DNA of 64,000 nucleotides from Syntrophobacterales bacterium (GTDB lineage: Bacteria; Desulfobacterota; Syntrophorhabdia; Syntrophorhabdales; Syntrophorhabdaceae): the NCBI GenBank assembly GCA_031274925.1, contig JAISPL010000014.1, forward strand, positions 1-64,000, given 5' to 3'. Below are positions 49,838-60,564 of the stretch, piece by piece (the stretch's first letter is position 1; every line of letters begins with the position of its first letter). Below the pieces are notes generated by a model that was not told the DNA's origin, did not search any database, and saw nothing but the letters and a program-made list of their open reading frames with translations. Both the position numbers and the translations under genes were made by a program.

Positions 49838-50016
49838 GCAAGACCTCTATTTCCTCAACAGCTACCCCTGATCTATCAAAACCCCGCAATGCCGTGTAAA
49901 CAACAAAATCTTGAACCTCTTGTGAGTGTGGGCGCCATTTCGCCGCTTAAGGCTTCTCGCCGAAACGAGCATGCACACCGCGTGCGGTATAAAGCTCCCG
50001 TTAAAGAGGTGTTGGT
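49838..50016 (-). ncRNA. ssrS: 6S RNA
   Basis: Minus strand, directly downstream of zapA, its usual place. The core shared with E. coli 6S RNA is readable: GCATGCTCG, a loop, CGAGAAGCCTTAA, then CCCACACTCAC and GAGGTTCAAGA in the same order. The ends pair through ACCTCT (50005-50010) with AGAGGT (49843-49848), closing a long stem around a central bubble. The ends are approximate. 6S RNA binds sigma-70 RNA polymerase and represses promoters in slow growth. Confidence 0.85.
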
Positions 50017-50026
50017 TCTAAGTTCA

Positions 50027-50314
50027 TCATTTATCACGCGCATCGCAGGGAACCTCAAATCCTTCAACCTTTTTCAAGAGCCTCAACGTTCGGCCTTCAA
50101 TTTTCTCTGCCTGTTCTTTCATGAGAAGATATTCATCGGAAAGTTCCATCATAGCCATGATGACTGCATTCAGGGTATTTACTATACCGTGGTTGCTGAG
50201 AACATATCCGATTCTCTCGGAAACAAACTCGGCAATCTCTTTAATTCTTTCGTCATCCTCGCCTATAAAGGTGAACGGTTGATTTAGTATCCTAACCTCA
50301 ACCTTTTTTTTCAT
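50027..50314 (-). CDS. zapA: Cell division protein ZapA
   Basis: 95 aa. It reads VEVRILNQPFTFIGEDDERIKEIAEFVSERI, then a C-terminal coiled coil. ZapA cross-links FtsZ filaments at the ring. It lies 19 bp after the ZapB-like gene and immediately before 6S RNA, an arrangement also found in gammaproteobacteria. Confidence 0.92.
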   Translation of the reverse strand: MKKKVEVRILNQPFTFIGEDDERIKEIAEFVSERIGYVLSNHGIVNTLNAVIMAMMELSDEYLLMKEQAEKIEGRTLRLLKKVEGFEVPCDARDK

Positions 50315-51794: not shown

Positions 51795-52946
51795 TCACTT
51801 GGCGGCCGTTATCCTTGAGGCCACCTCCGCGCCGAAGGCGCTGCATTTCACCGGGTGTACCCCCTCCATCTGTCTCGCGAGGTCGTATGTTACTACCCCC
51901 CTCCGGATTGTCTCCTGAACAGCGGTTTCGAGTGCGGTGGAAGCCGCTCCAAGGCCTATGTGGTGAAACATCATGGCTGCGGAAAGGAGAAAGGATGTAG
52001 GGTTAATCGTATCTTTGCCTGCGTATTTGGGGGCGCTTCCATGGGTCGGTTCGAAGATGGCGACCCGGTCACCTATATTTGCGCCCGGGGCCACACCAAG
52101 TCCGCCAATGAGTGCCGCACATGCGTCCGAAAGATAGTCACCGTTCAGGTTCGGACATAACAATATGTCGTAATCTTCCGGTCTTAATATGGCCTGCATG
52201 AACATGTTGTCCGCAATTCTGTCGTTAAGCGGGATCTTACCGACTTCATCTCCAGGAGTCACCGAATCAGAAAAGTCGCGGGCTATGTCATAGACCCACT
52301 CCCTGAAGGCTCCTTCCGTGAATTTCATGATGTTCCCCTTATGTACAACCGTGATTGACCTCCGGTTATTCTTAATGGCATATTCTATGACCCATTTCGC
52401 GAATTTTCTTGTAGCTCCAAGGCTAATTGGTTTTACGCCGACGCCGGTATCTTCTGGCAGGGATACTCCCATGGCCTCCTTAAGGAACCTGAGGATGGTG
52501 AAGGCTTCGTTGGTCCCCTCTTTCCATTCGATCCCCTTGTAGAGATCCTCCGTATTCTCTCTGAATATTATGAAGTCCACGTTTTCCGGTTTTTTGAGAG
52601 GACTCGGGAGGCCTTTGAAGTATTTTACTGGCCTCATGCATACATAAAGGTTAAAAATTTGTCTTAGGTAAACATTTACACTTCTGAAACCGCCACCCAC
52701 TGGCGTAGTGAGAGGCCCCTTGAGTGCAACTCTTTTTCTTTTGATCTCTTCTATTGTGGCATCGGAAAGGAGCGTCCCATCTCGGTCAATGGCCTTTTGT
52801 CCTGCCTGAAAAACCGTCCAGACGAGCCGCTTTTCGCCTCCGTAGGCCTTTATTACGGCTTCTTCAATGACTTCTCGAGAAGAGCTCCAGATGTCTTCTC
52901 CGGCGCCGTCACCCTCAATGTAAGGAATCTCAATGGTCTCTCTCAC
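51795..52946 (-). CDS. icd: Isocitrate dehydrogenase
   Basis: 383 aa. Isocitrate/isopropylmalate dehydrogenase fold: LKGPLTTPVGGGFRSVNVYLRQ, the substrate arginines in YVCMRPVKYF, and FEPTHGSAPKYAG. The SVN (SLN-like) motif and the TPVGGG block mark isocitrate over isopropylmalate. It oxidatively decarboxylates isocitrate to 2-oxoglutarate; NADP is likely but the cofactor is not certain. It ends the operon with aconitase and Re-citrate synthase and overlaps the small aconitase gene by 4 bp. Confidence 0.9.
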   Translation of the reverse strand: MRETIEIPYIEGDGAGEDIWSSSREVIEEAVIKAYGGEKRLVWTVFQAGQKAIDRDGTLLSDATIEEIKRKRVALKGPLTTPVGGGFRSVNVYLRQIFNLYVCMRPVKYFKGLPSPLKKPENVDFIIFRENTEDLYKGIEWKEGTNEAFTILRFLKEAMGVSLPEDTGVGVKPISLGATRKFAKWVIEYAIKNNRRSITVVHKGNIMKFTEGAFREWVYDIARDFSDSVTPGDEVGKIPLNDRIADNMFMQAILRPEDYDILLCPNLNGDYLSDACAALIGGLGVAPGANIGDRVAIFEPTHGSAPKYAGKDTINPTSFLLSAAMMFHHIGLGAASTALETAVQETIRRGVVTYDLARQMEGVHPVKCSAFGAEVASRITAAK

Positions 52947-53440
52947 AGTTTCAACTCCCCGTATTTTTTGATATAACCGTCGAGGCCGCCTTCGTTGAGT
53001 ATAGCCCTCATTATTTTGGGAAGGGGTGCGAATCTCTTTTCTACCCCCTTTGTCTTATCTACAAGTATTCCGTCATCGAGTCTGAGTTCCAGGGTATCTC
53101 CTTCGTCGATGTCATCCACGTTGCAGATGATAGCTGCCAATCCTACGTTGATTGCATTTCTGTAAAATATGCGGGCGAAGGAGCGGGCAACGATTGCGTC
53201 TATTCCTGCCATGCTGATGATCACGGGCGCATGCTCTCTGCTCGACCCAAGCCCGAAGTTTGACCCGCCCACGATAATGTCGCCCTTCTTTGCTTTTTCG
53301 TGAAAGCCAGGGGCTATGTCTTCGAAAACGTGCTTTGCGAGGTCCTCAAGATTGGATCTCAGGTGATAAAACCTGCCCGGTGTTATGTGGTCGGTGGAAA
53401 TATTATCACCGAACTTCCACGCCCTTCCTGCCAATATCAT
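52943..53440 (-). CDS. Aconitase/LeuD-type small subunit
   Basis: 165 aa. LeuD fold: [17 protein letters not shown], the substrate-loop [15 protein letters not shown] and [22 protein letters not shown] lies 6 bp before ATG 53440, which fixes the start inside the end of the large-subunit gene. Flanked by a citrate synthase and icd, it should act as the swivel domain of an aconitase and not of isopropylmalate isomerase; this is inference from context. Confidence 0.88.
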
Positions 53441-54698
53441 CAACAACCTCCCTGGGATCTGTAAGTTTTCCTTCAAGTGCAGCAGCAGCAGCGGTTGTCG
53501 GTGATGCGAGAATGATTCCGGAATCGGGGTTGCCCATCCTTCCCAGAAAGTTCCTGTTTGATGTGGAAACACACACCTCGCCGTCGCCGAGAACACCCTG
53601 GTGTAGTCCTATGCACGGCCCGCATCCTGGAGGGAGTATCGTGGCTCCAGCGTCGAAGAGGACCGCAATAATACCTTCGTCCAGCGCACGCCGGTAGACC
53701 GTACGTGAGCCTGGACAGACCAGCAGTCGCACGCCTTTTGCCTTGCAACGGCCTTGAAGCACCAGTGCCGCTGCTCTCAGGTCCTGAAATCTGCCGTTTG
53801 TGCACGAACCGATAAAAACCTGATCCACTTTAAGGCCTTTTACCCTGGTGTCCGTTATATCCACCGCATTATCCACCTGATGTGGCAGGCTTACCATGGG
53901 TGAAAGATCTCCGACATTGATATGAAATATCTTATCATACGTTGCATCCCTGTCGGGGGCGATCTCGACATAGGCTTTTTCTCTTCCCATCCGTGCAAGG
54001 TAACTTCGGGTCATCATATCCGACGGGAAGAGACCGCACTTCGCCCCCGCCTCTACCGCCATATTCGATATGGTCATCCTGTCTTCCACTTCCATGAGGG
54101 TCACAGTATCTCCCGCAAACTCCATCGATTTGTATGTCGCACCGTCAGCCGAGATCATACTGATTATCTTAATAATTAGGTCTTTTACGAAAACGCCCGA
54201 AGGAAAAACGCCGCTTATCTCAAACCTGAGGCTCTCCGGGACCCTTAGCCATGTTTTTCCAAGGCCCATTGCAGCCGCAATATCCGTGGAACCCATCCCG
54301 GTCGAAAAGGCGGAAAGGGCGCCTCCTGTGCATGTGTGCGAATCGGCGCCTATAAGGAGTTCACCCGGTGAAAGAGCTTGCTCTGCCATCAACTGGTGGC
54401 ATATTCCGTCTCCTACTTCACTTGTCGACGCGCCGTATGAGGCGGCGAAGTCCCGTATTATCACCTGATCGTTCGAGAGCTCCATTCTTGGACTCGGAGA
54501 ACCGTGATCGATAAAAAACGTAACCCGGCTTCCATCGAAAAGGGACTTGAAGCCCATGGCTTCGAATCGTTTTATTGCCAGGGGCGCAGTACCATCCTGG
54601 AGAAGAATTCTGTCTACGCCTACTATCGCGTAATCCCCCTGACTTACATCTGTTCCAGCCTTCATGGACAGTATCTTTTCGGCTATGGTTTTGCCCAT
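53406..54698 (-). CDS. Aconitase/LeuC-type large subunit
   Basis: 430 aa. 4Fe-4S hydro-lyase: [32 protein letters not shown] and GCGPCIG supply the three cluster cysteines. Length and split form match the LeuC/HacA family found in archaea and anaerobes. ATG 54698 is chosen as the family start [10 protein letters not shown]; the longer frame overlaps the synthase gene. It probably isomerises citrate to isocitrate, given its neighbours; isopropylmalate or homocitrate cannot be excluded. Confidence 0.88.
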
Positions 54699-54700
54699 AT

Positions 54701-56509
54701 CTATTCCCCGGCTTTCGTGAGGTCTTCGAATTTGATGTCGAGTCCAAGCACGCCCACTATCTCGCCCACCTGGTCCCTGACGGGGCACGACACGGTGACA
54801 CACAGGGCGCCGGTGAACTTGGAGGAATAGATATTCGTGACGCTGATCTTCCCTGACTTTATAGGGTTGATATACCATTCCCTGTCCGAGAAGTCCTCAT
54901 TTAGACCAATCTTGTGGTACTTGGCCCTGTCGAAAACTTGATTGATATTTTTGGTGATCTTTATCCCCTCGCTGTTCACGATGTAGGCGAACTGAATGTA
55001 AGGATACTCTTCCACGATATTGCTAAGAACTTTCTCTTGCTTTTCCGGGACCATCGTCTTGATGTCCGGATCTTCGATATATTTCTCGATCAAATTAGCC
55101 GCCATGTCGTAGGCCCTCTTTTTTAGCAATTCGAACTCGGATACGAATATTTCAGGTACGTATCTCCTCACGAGGTGTTCTATCTCATTATCCGATATAA
55201 CGGTTACACGGCCTTCATCGTATTGTTTGAGTATCCATTTATTGACCTTGGCTACCCCGGGATGTGTCCTTTCGATCCTGTCTTTTCCTAAAAGGGCGAA
55301 GTGAGAATTAATCCAGTGTGCGATACCAGAGAGTCCTGACTTGTCGGTAATATTTATAGTAAGCGGCCGATTCAGAATTCTGTCGGTGTCAAAGGGGATG
55401 TAGATCTCCTCATTTTTGACTATACCATCGATATGGACGCCGGCTGACGTGGTGTTAAAGTCGATCCCGATGAAAGGCTGACCTCTGGGGATCTGATGGC
55501 CGAGCTCTTTTTCGAAGTAATTGCGTGTTTCGGTGATGGTTTGCGTGTCTATTCCGTTTGTGTCGCCCATGAGACTGATGTATTCCATTATGAGCCCTTC
55601 AATAGGGGCGTTCCCGGTTCTTTCGCCGATACCGAGAAGCGTTCCATTTACATAAGTGCAACCGTAAAGCCAAGAGCTTACACTATTGACCACGACTTTG
55701 TTGAAATCATTATGGCCGTGCCATTCCAGACATTCAGAAGGAACGCCTGCATCGTCGATCATGACCCTCACCAGCTTTCCTATGGCTCTGGGCAACGCTG
55801 CCCCTGGGTACGTGACGCCTATGCCGAGGGTGTCGCACAACCTTATTTTAATCGGGACCTTCGCGTCCTCGGCAATATTCATCAGTGCCTGCGCGAAAGG
55901 TACGCAGAACCCGTATATATCTGCTCTTGTCACATCTTCAAGATGGCATCTCGGTATAATCCCATGTTCGAGCGTATCCTCCACGATCCTGATGTAGTCC
56001 TCGAATGCCTGCGACCTGGTCTTTTTCAACTTGAGAAATATATGATAATCTGAACAGCTTGTAAGGATTCCCGTCTCTTTAATGCCGAGGTCTCTTACGA
56101 GCTGTAAGTCATCTTTCTTTGCTCTTATCCAGCCGGTAATCTCGGGGTAACGATATCCTTTCGAACGGCACCTTTCAATGGCATCGCGGTCTTTATTGGT
56201 ATAGAGGAAGAACTCACTCTGCCTGATAACCCCTTTGGGACCCGATAACCGATGGAGCAGATCAAACAGGTCCTCAATCTGCGCGGCGGTAAACGGCGGC
56301 CGGGATTGTTGGCCGTCCCGGAACGTGGTATCCGTGATATATATGTCCTCGGGTGGATCAATAAGCTCAATCTTGTGATCGAATTTTATCTTGCAGACTT
56401 CAGAGAATGGGAACATATCCCTGTAAAGTTCGGGTTCCTCTACGTCTATAAGCGGGTACTTCGCGCCCTTAGAAACATTTTTGAAAATGAAACCCGATTT
56501 CTTTCTCAA
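54701..56509 (-). CDS. Re-type citrate synthase (HMGL family) with C-terminal Cache-like domain
   Basis: 602 aa. Residues 50-430 are a DRE-TIM metallolyase-like synthase: [44 protein letters not shown]. Pattern and neighbours match Re-citrate synthase as known from Clostridium kluyveri and Syntrophus aciditrophicus, not homocitrate or isopropylmalate synthase. The C-terminal 150 residues are extra: a helix ([20 protein letters not shown]) and a Cache/PDC-like fold ([13 protein letters not shown], then DFSDREWY at 539-546, then VSCPVRD and VGVLGLDI). No signal peptide or membrane helix is present, so this sensor-like domain is cytoplasmic. TTG start after GGGAGG. Confidence 0.83.
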
Positions 56510-56510
56510 T

Positions 56511-58271
56511 TTATCCTCCCGACGGGTCCACGACAGCCCGTATCTTAAGTTCGTTTAACTGTCTGGCCGATATCTTCGAAGGTGCGCCGGTCATAAGGCA
56601 TGTGCCCCTTTGGGTTTTCGGGAAGGGTATGACGTCCCTGATACTTTCCAACCTGAGCAGCATCATGAGGAGCCGGTCAAATCCGAAGGCGATTCCACCG
56701 TGAGGCGGTGCACCCATCTCAAGGGCTTCGAGAAGAAATCCGAATTTTTCTGTTGCCTCCTCTTCTTTTATGTTGAGGAGTTTGAACATGGCCATCTGTT
56801 CGTCGGTTCTGTAAATCCTGATACTGCCTCCTCCTATTTCCACGCCGTTTAGGACAAGATCGTACGCTTTGGCTTTGATCGTATCATAGTCACCCTGAAA
56901 ACTCCTCACGTTTTCCTTTGCCGAGGTAAAAGGGTGATGCCTGGCCATATACCGTTTTTCTTCTTCGCTGTACTCAAGAAGCGGGAAATCTACCACCCAT
57001 AGAAACTTGAAAAGGTTTTTTGCAATAAGGTCGTATTTTTCTCCGAGATAAAGCCGAAACCTGCCCATTAGTTCGTTGGTCTTGTTTCTCGGTCCTGCCA
57101 TAATGAAAAGGACATCGCCGTTTGCTAATCCCAGCCTATTGTCCATTTCAGTCTTTTCCTGATCTTTCAGATACTTGACGATGGGGGACTGAAGCGTGTC
57201 GTTTTCCTTGCGCATCCATATGAGACCGCCTGAACCCATCTCTTTTGCTGTATCGACCGCAGTATCGAGATCCTTCCGGGAAAGGGTCTTGCCCTTAAGG
57301 ACCACGGCTTTGACCGCACCTTTCTCCTCCACGGTCTTCTTGAGGATGCCAAAATCAGTCTCATTGAAGATATCCGTCAGGTCTGTCATGAGGAGGTCGA
57401 ACCGCATGTCCGGCTTATCTGTCCCATAAAGTTCCATCACGTCGTCATAACTCATTCTTAAAATCGGGGTCTCAAGGATGTTACCCGTAACGGATTCGTA
57501 CACCGCTTTTATAAGACCCTCGCTCAAGGCGATGACATCGTCCACGTCCACGAAACTCATTTCGATGTCTACTTGAGTGAACTCGGGCTGTCTGTCCGCC
57601 CTCAAGTCCTCGTCCCTGAAACACCTCACAACCTGAAAGTACCTGTCGAATCCCCCTACCATCAGCAACTGTTTGAAAAGTTGAGGAGATTGTGGCAAGG
57701 CATAGAAGTTGCCGGGGTTGAGCCTGCTCGGCACGATAAAGTCCCGCGCTCCCTCAGGAGTACTCTTGGTGAGCATGGGGGTCTCGAATTCATAGAAGCC
57801 ATTATCGACAAGGTAGTCCCTGGTCGCCTTATAGGCCCGGCTTCTGATAAGGAATGACCTCTTTATTTCGTCTCTGCGCATATCAAGGTACCGATATTTG
57901 AGGCGGAGCGATTCGTTGGGTTCCTCCTCGTCCAACTGGAAGGGCAGAGGTTTACACGTATTGAGAATCTCGAAATTAGTTACGTATATTTCCTCTTCGC
58001 CTGTGGGGATGTTCATGTTTTCGGTCCCCTCAGGGCGGAGGTCAACTTTCCCTGTAATTGTGATGACGTATTCCTGCTTGAGTTCTCCCGCTTTATTGTG
58101 GGCTTCACGCGAAATGTCGGGAGAAAAGACTATCTGCACGATGCCGCTTACATCTCTAAGATCAACGAATACGAGACCGCCATGGTCTCTTCTGCGAAAC
58201 ACCCAACCTGACAGGGTGATCGTCTTCCCCACATCTTCTTTTGTAACCAGTCCGCAGTATTTATCTCGCAC
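56511..58271 (-). CDS. aspS: Aspartyl-tRNA synthetase
   Basis: 586 aa, bacterial type with the GAD insertion. It has the OB-fold start (TLSGWVFRRRDHGGLVFVDLRD), class II motif 2 FRDEDLRADRQPEFTQ and motif 3 GIAFGFDRLLML. GTG 58271 follows GGGGG by 6 bp. The downstream citrate synthase starts within a few bases of its stop, so the four metabolic genes seem to be transcribed from the aspS promoter. Confidence 0.96.
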   Translation of the reverse strand: MRDKYCGLVTKEDVGKTITLSGWVFRRRDHGGLVFVDLRDVSGIVQIVFSPDISREAHNKAGELKQEYVITITGKVDLRPEGTENMNIPTGEEEIYVTNFEILNTCKPLPFQLDEEEPNESLRLKYRYLDMRRDEIKRSFLIRSRAYKATRDYLVDNGFYEFETPMLTKSTPEGARDFIVPSRLNPGNFYALPQSPQLFKQLLMVGGFDRYFQVVRCFRDEDLRADRQPEFTQVDIEMSFVDVDDVIALSEGLIKAVYESVTGNILETPILRMSYDDVMELYGTDKPDMRFDLLMTDLTDIFNETDFGILKKTVEEKGAVKAVVLKGKTLSRKDLDTAVDTAKEMGSGGLIWMRKENDTLQSPIVKYLKDQEKTEMDNRLGLANGDVLFIMAGPRNKTNELMGRFRLYLGEKYDLIAKNLFKFLWVVDFPLLEYSEEEKRYMARHHPFTSAKENVRSFQGDYDTIKAKAYDLVLNGVEIGGGSIRIYRTDEQMAMFKLLNIKEEEATEKFGFLLEALEMGAPPHGGIAFGFDRLLMMLLRLESIRDVIPFPKTQRGTCLMTGAPSKISARQLNELKIRAVVDPSGG

Positions 58272-58623: not shown

Positions 58624-60564
58624 ATGGAAACTACTCAATTACGCCGTATTTATAGGAGATTAAAAAAATTTTTACCAGACCCAGGAGAGGTCTATCTCAT
58701 TCAGTCGATTGAGGCGCAAATGCTCTTTGTCTGCGAGAAGGAGACAATTCTGGAGCGGTATGACGCGTCAACCTCCAGCTTCGGGAACGGAATCAGGGAA
58801 GGCTCGTTCAAGACGCCACCGGGCGTCCACAGAATCGTAGAGAAAATAGGCGCCGGTGCTCCACTGGGCCGTATTTTTAAAGAATGCCGTGATACGGGTG
58901 CCGATTGGGACGGCGTCTCCATGGAAGAAAATCTGATACTTACCCGTATTTTACGACTGGAAGGAATGGAGACAGGGGTCAACAAGGGCGAGGGCGTGGA
59001 TTCATGGGGACGTTGTATTTACATCCATGGTACGAATCGGGAGGACCTTGTAGGCATGCCTCTGTCTCACGGTTGCCTATGTCTGCGTAACGACGATATC
59101 ATCCGTTTGTTTGAGACGGTGAGGGAGGGAGTGGTCATCTTCATTGAGCCTCCGCCCGTGGTAATCGGTGAAACCTCATGCTGGAGTATCCATTTTACGG
59201 GTGTCTTTGGTACCGGCATGAGCGCTTTGGCGCAATACCTGCGCTTTCAGGGTATTTTTGTCTCCGGCTCCGACCGTCTCCTTGTCAGTGAGGACACAGT
59301 CCCCATCCGGCAAGGCCTTGAGGGTCTTGGGTGTGACATTGTAAATCAGGACGGCTCTGGGATTGATGAGGATACCGATATTGTCTGCATCTCTACGGCA
59401 ATAGAAGAAACAAATCCCGATATTGCCACTGCCCACGCTTTGGACCTTCCCATTGTGCATCGTTCAGATCTGCTTGCCGCAATTATCTCGTCCCATAGGA
59501 CGGTTGCCGTCGCGGGCACGAGCGGCAAATCGACGGTGACGGCAATGATCTTTGAGTTTCTGACTGCGTGCGGGAAATCGCCTTCTCTCATAAGCGGCGC
59601 GGCCTTGCTGAGACTTGAGAAGCAGGGGCTTATCGGCAATGCATTCAGCGGAGGTTCCGATCTTATGATTGTTGAAGCTGACGAGAGTGACGGGACGTTG
59701 ACCAAATATTCTCCTCATGCAGCGGTTATTCTTAATGTTTCCAAGGATCACAAGAGTGTAGATGAAATAAGGGCGCTTTTCGAGACGCTCGTTTCGAAAA
59801 GCGGATGGACTGCTTTGAATGCGGACGATCCCATACTCGCTTGTCTTCCTCGGGCAGTCGGTTTCGGCGGGAATACCTCGGCATCGTGGAGACCTGACCG
59901 CGAGGAACTTTTCAGCACCTCGGTGAAGCTTTCTCGCAATGGTATCGAATATCACCTGCCGCTCCCAGGAAATCATAACCTGGAAAACCTGCGGGCTGCT
60001 CTCTGTGTATGTGAGTATTTCGGTTGCGAGGAACTTCCTCTTGCCGATGGGGTGAAGAATTTTGAGGGCGTTGCCCGACGTTTTTCAGTAACAGGGACGG
60101 AGGACGGTGTCCATGTAGTTGATGATTTCGCCCACAATCCGGCGAAGATAGCCGCTGCCGTAAACGCGGCAAGAGGCCTCTCGGGGCGCATCGTTGCTGT
60201 GTACCAGCCTCACGGGTTTGGTCCCACGAGGTTTCTGAAAGATGAATACATTTCGACCTTCCAAGCCGTCTTTCGACGGGAAGACTCACTATATCTTCTG
60301 CCGATTTATTACGGTGGAGGCACAGCGGAAAAGAACATCGCCTCGGAGGATATCGTAAACGGTTTGGGCCTCGTGCCATTTCATGCCTGTGCGGTAACGA
60401 GCCGCAGCGAACTACTGGCGGGATTGATAGCTGACGTGACGCCGGGCGACTGTGTTCTCGTAATGGGAGCCAGAGATCCGTCGCTGCCCGCTCTTGTGAG
60501 GAAAGTGGTCAATCTTTTTGGCGGAACAAAGAGAAAAGGTGTGACCGTCCAGTCATCGGAATAA
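58624..60564 (+). CDS. L,D-transpeptidase (YkuD) fused to a MurC/Mpl-like Mur ligase
   Basis: 646 aa. Residues 20-178 are a YkuD domain: YLIQSIEAQMLFVCEKE, KTPPGVHRI, then IHGTNRED (His135) and LSHGCLCLRNDD with catalytic Cys151 and Arg155. Residues 187-635 are a Mur ligase: N-terminal HFTGVFGTGMSALAQYL (MurC/Mpl-type Rossmann), ATP loop GTSGKST (298-304), EADESDG (351), GNHNLENLRAAL and VVDDFAHNPAKI. There is no signal peptide or membrane helix, so the normally periplasmic YkuD domain would be cytoplasmic. A role in recycling or editing of peptidoglycan peptides is inference. The ATG follows GGACGGAG. Confidence 0.88.
   Translation: METTQLRRIYRRLKKFLPDPGEVYLIQSIEAQMLFVCEKETILERYDASTSSFGNGIREGSFKTPPGVHRIVEKIGAGAPLGRIFKECRDTGADWDGVSMEENLILTRILRLEGMETGVNKGEGVDSWGRCIYIHGTNREDLVGMPLSHGCLCLRNDDIIRLFETVREGVVIFIEPPPVVIGETSCWSIHFTGVFGTGMSALAQYLRFQGIFVSGSDRLLVSEDTVPIRQGLEGLGCDIVNQDGSGIDEDTDIVCISTAIEETNPDIATAHALDLPIVHRSDLLAAIISSHRTVAVAGTSGKSTVTAMIFEFLTACGKSPSLISGAALLRLEKQGLIGNAFSGGSDLMIVEADESDGTLTKYSPHAAVILNVSKDHKSVDEIRALFETLVSKSGWTALNADDPILACLPRAVGFGGNTSASWRPDREELFSTSVKLSRNGIEYHLPLPGNHNLENLRAALCVCEYFGCEELPLADGVKNFEGVARRFSVTGTEDGVHVVDDFAHNPAKIAAAVNAARGLSGRIVAVYQPHGFGPTRFLKDEYISTFQAVFRREDSLYLLPIYYGGGTAEKNIASEDIVNGLGLVPFHACAVTSRSELLAGLIADVTPGDCVLVMGARDPSLPALVRKVVNLFGGTKRKGVTVQSSE

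What the first reader, a model, noticed from the sequence alone, without database searches (positions are those of the whole stretch)
54701..56509. Cache/PDC-like sensor domain on a soluble Re-citrate synthase
Seen: 150 residues beyond the synthase core, with [15 protein letters not shown] and VGVLGLDI in the order typical of Cache sensor domains, and no signal or membrane helix. Known: Cache domains are nearly always extracytoplasmic sensors of small acids or amino acids; family members such as homocitrate synthase instead have a LeuA regulatory domain. Inference: a cytoplasmic allosteric domain that may sense an acid or amino acid such as glutamate.
Basis: partly seen in the sequence, partly recalled or inferred. 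Interest (0 to 1): 0.7.

Follow-up and report, generated by a model that had tools for sequence, protein, structure and literature searches.

The report
Citrate synthase fused to sensor domain
The enzyme that makes citrate in this anaerobic bacterium ends in a Cache domain, a small-molecule sensor normally found outside the cell membrane; the same fusion occurs in bacteria of many phyla, which suggests that citrate making is switched by an as yet unknown small molecule inside the cell.

Summary
ORF 56509-54701 (minus strand, 602 aa) is a Re-citrate-synthase-type DRE-TIM enzyme (residues 17-455) followed by one Cache domain (about 456-600). The Cache domain passes two Pfam cut-offs; its model (pLDDT 88.6) matches KinD, WalK, CitA, Tlp3 and DctB sensors (Z 14-16). 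There is no membrane helix or signal peptide. The gene sits between aspS and aconitase/isocitrate dehydrogenase genes, and the genome has no detectable ordinary (Si) citrate synthase.

The tail is neither a local oddity nor universal. About 140 of 145 orthologues sampled in this phylum carry it, as do homologues in Nitrospirota, Omnitrophota, Elusimicrobiota, Lentisphaerota, Spirochaetota and others. Homologues in Planctomycetota, Gemmatimonadota, Bacteroidota, Bacillota and Deinococcus lack it while keeping the whole core. The tail is under strong purifying selection. Residues that bind the ligand's carboxylate and amino groups in amino-acid Cache sensors are nearly fixed (Arg543, Trp545, Tyr/Phe561, Asp591), but one of six motif positions is missing.

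Best reading: a cytoplasmic Cache module used as the regulatory domain of a metabolic enzyme, in the place of the LeuA or RAM domains of its relatives, binding a small carboxylate, probably an amino acid. Glutamate is plausible but untested; regulation is inferred, not shown.

The parts
54701..56509 (-). Re-citrate-synthase-type enzyme with C-terminal Cache domain, 602 aa, TTG start
   Evidence: GGAGG upstream of TTG
55145..56461 (-). DRE-TIM catalytic core plus accessory subdomains, residues 17-455; the metal and catalytic motifs (R64-D65, HGHND 264-268, N300) are invariant in the alignment of 61 tail-bearing sequences
   Evidence: Pfam HMGL-like; invariant columns; homocitrate synthase 6ktq Z 33.8, aligned 53-455
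54704..55144 (-). C-terminal appendage, residues 456-602: long helix plus one Cache module
   Evidence: model pLDDT 88.6; absent from tail-less homologues whose ORFs end near residue 455
54713..55033 (-). Cache/PDC core, residues 493-599
   Evidence: PF22673 58.8 bits and PF02743 54 bits, both over the curated cut-offs; KinD, WalK, CitA, Tlp3, DctB Z 14-16
54872..54883 (-). R543-x-W545-Y546: counterpart of PctA R126-x-W128-Y129 and KinD R131
   Evidence: profile alignment to PctA and KinD; R in 57/61, W in 61/61, F or Y in 60/61
54737..54739 (-). D591: counterpart of PctA D173; invariant in 61/61
56511..58271 (-). aspS (aspartyl-tRNA synthetase), immediately upstream
53406..54698 (-). aconitase-family large subunit; likely start at 54698, just after the synthase stop codon
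52943..53596 (-). aconitase-family small subunit (the true start is probably inside this ORF)
51795..52946 (-). isocitrate/isopropylmalate dehydrogenase family, probably isocitrate dehydrogenase

Best explanation
This is the organism's only detectable citrate synthase, of the Re type, and it carries a cytoplasmic single Cache domain at its C-terminus as a ligand-binding regulatory domain. Shown here: the Cache fold, its cytoplasmic context, its conservation across phyla, strong purifying selection on the tail, and near-invariance of the pocket residues that in amino-acid Cache sensors hold the carboxylate (Arg543) and amino group (Asp591). Inferred: the domain binds a small carboxylate, most likely an alpha-amino acid. 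Inferred further: binding changes the activity or assembly of the synthase, most simply feedback control of the citrate to 2-oxoglutarate to glutamate branch. The Cache module sits where relatives carry a RAM domain (archaeal homocitrate synthase) or a LeuA regulatory domain (isopropylmalate synthase).
For: Two Pfam Cache families pass their cut-offs. Model pLDDT 88.6 matches KinD Z 16.0, WalK 15.6, Tlp3 14.4, CitA 14.3, DctB 14.1. The family profile finds Tlp3 (1.2e-11), KinD (1.1e-9) and PctA (5.2e-7) by sequence. No membrane helix, whereas the five other Cache proteins examined in relatives have predicted membrane helices. Pocket: R543 57/61 (K or H in the rest), W545 61/61, F/Y546 60/61, Y/F561 59/61, D591 61/61; all five together in 54/61. 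Tail dN/dS 0.016-0.066 in the seven pairs that could be measured, near the core's 0.015-0.081; tail and core distances correlate (r 0.74, 0 of 2000 permutations). Pathway: aconitase and isocitrate dehydrogenase genes directly downstream; no PF00285 citrate synthase in this genome or in 30 of the 31 genomes of its order searched besides/including it (only G006 has one). The core aligns to homocitrate synthase lacking its RAM domain over 53-455 and the tail follows directly.
Against: No ligand, kinetics or experimental structure. One of the six positions of the published amino-acid motif (PctA Tyr121) is Glu/variable here, and in the related amine motif single mismatches lowered or abolished binding (PMC10104139). 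Tail-less homologues live without the domain, so regulation is not essential to the enzyme class. That the enzyme makes citrate rests on relatives, gene order and the absence of another synthase.
Confidence: 0.6

Rival explanations
1. The Cache tail is a structural or dimerisation module kept for stability or assembly, with no effector.
For: Cache and PAS domains often dimerise through their N-terminal helix (general knowledge); residues near the start of the tail such as P452, F455 and S457 are also highly conserved.
Against: W545, S563, D591 and nearly always R543 are kept in sequences whose tails share only 47% identity on average. A pure scaffold need not keep a carboxylate-binding Arg and an amine-binding Asp. 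Complete tail-less cores exist in many phyla.
Confidence: 0.2
2. The tail binds an organic acid without an amino group (pyruvate, oxaloacetate, 2-oxoglutarate or citrate) and reports carbon supply rather than amino-acid level.
For: The closest fold match is KinD, solved with pyruvate, and KinD R131 aligns with R543; CitA (citrate) and DctB (succinate, malonate) are also among the best folds. K517 is basic in 55/61.
Against: D591 is invariant here but is Ala at the aligned KinD position; an acidic residue in the pocket favours a ligand with an amino group. The tail shares the RxW[FY]...[YF]...D pattern of amino-acid sensors.
Confidence: 0.25
3. The protein is a signalling protein rather than an enzyme: the Cache domain reports to a partner and the synthase core is degenerate.
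For: Cache proteins described in a census all had signal-transduction outputs apart from one family (PMC4822843).
Against: The DRE-TIM metal-site and catalytic motifs are invariant in the alignment; it lies among citrate-pathway genes and the genome lacks another citrate synthase.
Confidence: 0.03

Closest known systems
Re-citrate synthases (Clostridium kluyveri, Syntrophus aciditrophicus, Dehalococcoides types; DRE-TIM metallolyases)
   Same: Same superfamily and probably the same function: conserved core, aconitase and isocitrate dehydrogenase neighbours, no Si-type enzyme in the genome. Close tail-less relatives occur in Clostridia (L121, L135, L148).
   Different: A Cache domain of about 145 residues is appended. 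Whether the characterised Syntrophus enzyme has the tail could not be checked; a Syntrophaceae homologue (L126) has it.
Isopropylmalate synthase with LeuA regulatory domain; archaeal homocitrate synthase with RAM domain
   Same: Same catalytic fold (Z about 31-34) with a small C-terminal effector domain placed after the accessory subdomains.
   Different: The appended domain is of an unrelated family (Cache, not LeuA or RAM).
KinD sensor domain of Bacillus subtilis (pyruvate-bound structure 4jgp)
   Same: Best fold match; shared DRxFF/DRxWF and YSS-[RK]-x-TG segments; R131 aligns with R543.
   Different: KinD is a membrane histidine kinase with an extracellular sensor; it lacks the Asp corresponding to D591.
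dCache_1AA amino-acid sensors (PctA, Tlp3, Mlp24)
   Same: Arg, Trp, aromatic, aromatic and Asp pocket positions are kept.
   Different: Single instead of double module, cytoplasmic, fused to a metabolic enzyme, and the Tyr121 position is not kept.
YkuI_C and Diacid_rec (mainly intracellular Cache families)
   Same: Precedent for cytoplasmic Cache-like domains (PMC4822843); the tail profile weakly matches YkuI (E 5e-4).
   Different: Those sit on c-di-GMP or transcription regulators, not on a biosynthetic enzyme, and Pfam assigns the tail to other Cache families.

Membership tests
Cache superfamily | Significant match to Cache/PDC profiles | tested here: met
   PF22673 58.8 bits (cut-off 27) and PF02743 54.0 bits (cut-off 45)
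Cache superfamily | Long N-terminal helix followed by a PAS-like sheet domain | tested here: met
   Model with helix 18-38 of the tail and the Cache core; best matches KinD, WalK, CitA, Tlp3, DctB, Z 14-16
Cache superfamily | Extracytoplasmic location between membrane helices (typical of most families, not strictly defining) | tested here: not met
   No hydrophobic segment, fused to a cytoplasmic enzyme. Intracellular Cache families exist (PMC4822843), so membership stands.
dCache_1AA amino-acid sensor | Full motif (PctA Y121, R126, W128, Y129, Y144, D173) | tested here: not met
   Five of six positions kept; the Y121 position is E538 or variable
dCache_1AA amino-acid sensor | Two Cache modules | tested here: not met
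   Only one module fits in the 147-residue tail
Re-citrate synthase | DRE-TIM metallolyase core with metal-binding motifs | tested here: met
Re-citrate synthase | Citrate formation with Re stereochemistry | not testable with these tools
   Indirect only: neighbours aconitase and isocitrate dehydrogenase; no Si-citrate synthase in the genome
LeuA-domain allosteric synthase | LeuA regulatory domain at the C-terminus | tested here: not met
   No LeuA-domain match in Pfam; Cache instead

The most novel reading that the evidence does not exclude
A Cache domain, the commonest extracellular sensor of prokaryotes, has been turned inside the cell into the allosteric domain of a central metabolic enzyme: it reads an internal amino acid (plausibly glutamate) and sets citrate synthesis, and this has been kept across many bacterial phyla and repeatedly lost.
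Probability: 0.4. Interest if true: 0.75.

Novelty: new variant of a known kind. Interest (0 to 1): 0.62.

Why it matters
Control of Re-citrate synthase is essentially undescribed in the papers searched here, though it is the entry to glutamate synthesis in many anaerobes. A Cache domain in that role would extend the Cache family from membrane receptors to enzyme allostery, and would show that the same attachment point on this enzyme superfamily has received at least three different effector domains (LeuA, RAM, Cache). Natural tail-bearing and tail-less pairs make it directly testable.

Tried and rejected
Universal structural part of the enzyme: rejected, since 38 of 80 homologues from the genome-contig scan end near residue 455. 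One exclusive clade of tail-bearing enzymes: rejected by AU test (p 0.005); the tree needs about five changes, best read as early gain with several losses or transfers, but the root is unknown. Chance motif match: rejected. Tail query against phage records: nothing. Literature: no paper in the library joins Cache domain with this enzyme in a relevant way, with allosteric metabolic enzymes, or names SYN_02536; papers on the C. kluyveri and S. aciditrophicus enzymes are not held. Tallying the tail in other phyla by the genome search failed because centres must be G handles. A dN/dS estimate for the window and its two genus mates failed because synonymous changes are saturated. RNA families and tRNAs: none at this locus.

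Full report
What is there. The reading frame at 54701-56509 on the minus strand encodes 602 residues from a TTG start. A GGAGG lies just upstream of the TTG and overlaps the end of aspS. Pfam finds an HMGL-like (DRE-TIM) domain at 56-330 and, above both curated cut-offs, MCP-like_PDC_1 at 493-599 (58.8 bits) and dCache_1 at 473-598 (54.0 bits). There is no signal peptide or membrane helix: the highest 19-residue hydropathy mean is 1.03.

The enzyme. The core aligns over residues 53-455 with Sulfolobus homocitrate synthase lacking its RAM domain (Z 33.8) and with isopropylmalate synthases (Z about 31). Its metal and catalytic motifs (RDGQQ, HGHND, GERTGN) are invariant or nearly so in 61 diverse tail-bearing sequences. 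Downstream lie aconitase-family large and small subunits and an isocitrate/isopropylmalate dehydrogenase; upstream lies aspS. The genome, 97% complete, has no match to the ordinary citrate synthase family PF00285, and of the genomes of its order in the same search only G006 has one. This fits a Re-citrate synthase that is the only citrate synthase; the chemistry itself was not tested. Named close relatives are Syntrophorhabdales (L104, L109, L130), so the window comes from that neighbourhood of the Desulfobacterota/Thermodesulfobacteriota.

The tail. Modelled with 61 natural sequences, the tail reaches pLDDT 88.6. Its best structural matches are the KinD (Z 16.0), WalK (15.6), Tlp3 (14.4), CitA (14.3) and DctB (14.1) sensor domains (Foldseek E 2.3e-9 for KinD). 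A profile of the tails finds Tlp3, KinD and PctA in the PDB by sequence alone. It is a single Cache module with a long N-terminal helix.

Who has it. In a phylum-wide sample, 145 of 297 genomes have an orthologue. About 140 of these show the tail, four end near residue 455 (G047, G064, G236, G314) and one is cut by a contig end. Among 80 homologues from the genome-contig scan, 42 have the tail and 38 do not. Tail-bearing: Desulfobacterota, Nitrospirota, Omnitrophota, Elusimicrobia, Lentisphaerae, Spirochaetes, Fibrobacteres, Termititenax, Erginobacter. Tail-less: Planctomycetota, Gemmatimonadota, Bacteroidota, KSB1, Clostridia, Paenibacillus and, from plasmid data, Deinococcus. On a tree of the core alone, tail presence needs about five changes against 17 for shuffled labels, and a single exclusive tail clade is rejected (p 0.005). 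The simplest reading is an early gain followed by losses and transfers; the two tail-less Desulfobacterota enzymes L051 and L052 branch among Bacillota. Direction cannot be proved without a root.

Constraint and pocket. Tail and core distances correlate (r 0.74, none of 2000 permutations as high), so the two parts have largely travelled together. Tail dN/dS is 0.016-0.066 in the seven pairs where it could be computed, near the core values. The positions that bind the ligand or line the pocket in PctA (numbering from PMC10104139) are largely kept: R126 = R543 (57/61), W128 = W545 (61/61), Y129 = F/Y546 (60/61), Y144 = Y/F561 (59/61), D173 = D591 (61/61). Y121 is replaced by E538 or other residues. 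KinD R131, the residue mutated in the KinD structures, aligns with R543, but KinD has Ala at the D591 position. The pattern argues for a ligand with a carboxylate and probably an amino group. It does not identify the ligand, and the incomplete motif means the protein cannot be filed as a dCache_1AA sensor.

Mechanism. The tail begins where archaeal homocitrate synthase carries its RAM domain and isopropylmalate synthase its LeuA domain (for the end of the shared core; the identity of those domains is general knowledge). Together with the retained pocket, this makes an effector-binding regulatory domain the best explanation. Feedback by glutamate or another amino acid is the simplest form given the gene neighbours, but that step is inference. 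A purely structural role and an organic-acid ligand are live rivals.

Novelty. A census of Cache domains found 78% confidently extracellular and signal-transduction outputs in all but one family (PMC4822843); the intracellular families were YkuI_C and Diacid_rec. In relatives, the five other matches to the tail profile that were examined are proteins with predicted membrane helices. No paper in the library describes this fusion, but the Syntrophus and C. kluyveri enzyme papers are not held, and public domain databases may display the architecture without comment. Hence: new variant of a known kind.

Noticed in passing
window 56511-58271 and 54701-56509: aspS lies immediately upstream of the Cache-tailed synthase here and within the fetched flanks in 19 of 45 non-redundant tail-bearing loci (0 of 21 tail-less), mostly Desulfobacterota. 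Why an aspartyl-tRNA synthetase gene keeps this company is unexplained.
   Followed up: partly
window 49877-50054: 6S RNA (RF00013, 85.5 bits) on the minus strand.
   Followed up: no
window 58624-60564: One ORF carries an L,D-transpeptidase (YkuD) domain fused in front of a complete Mur ligase (three Pfam domains); an unusual combination.
   Followed up: no
L049 (Deinococcus wulumuqiensis plasmid pDrdI) 2715-5293: A distant tail-less relative of the synthase (37% identical) lies divergently next to an ordinary citrate/2-methylcitrate synthase gene.
   Followed up: no
L051, L052 (G236, G064): Two genomes of the window's phylum carry tail-less synthases that branch among Bacillota, suggesting replacement by horizontal transfer.
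   Followed up: partly
L054 (G258): The open frame extends to 1014 aa with about 400 residues before the synthase core; possible extra N-terminal domain or just an open frame.
   Followed up: no
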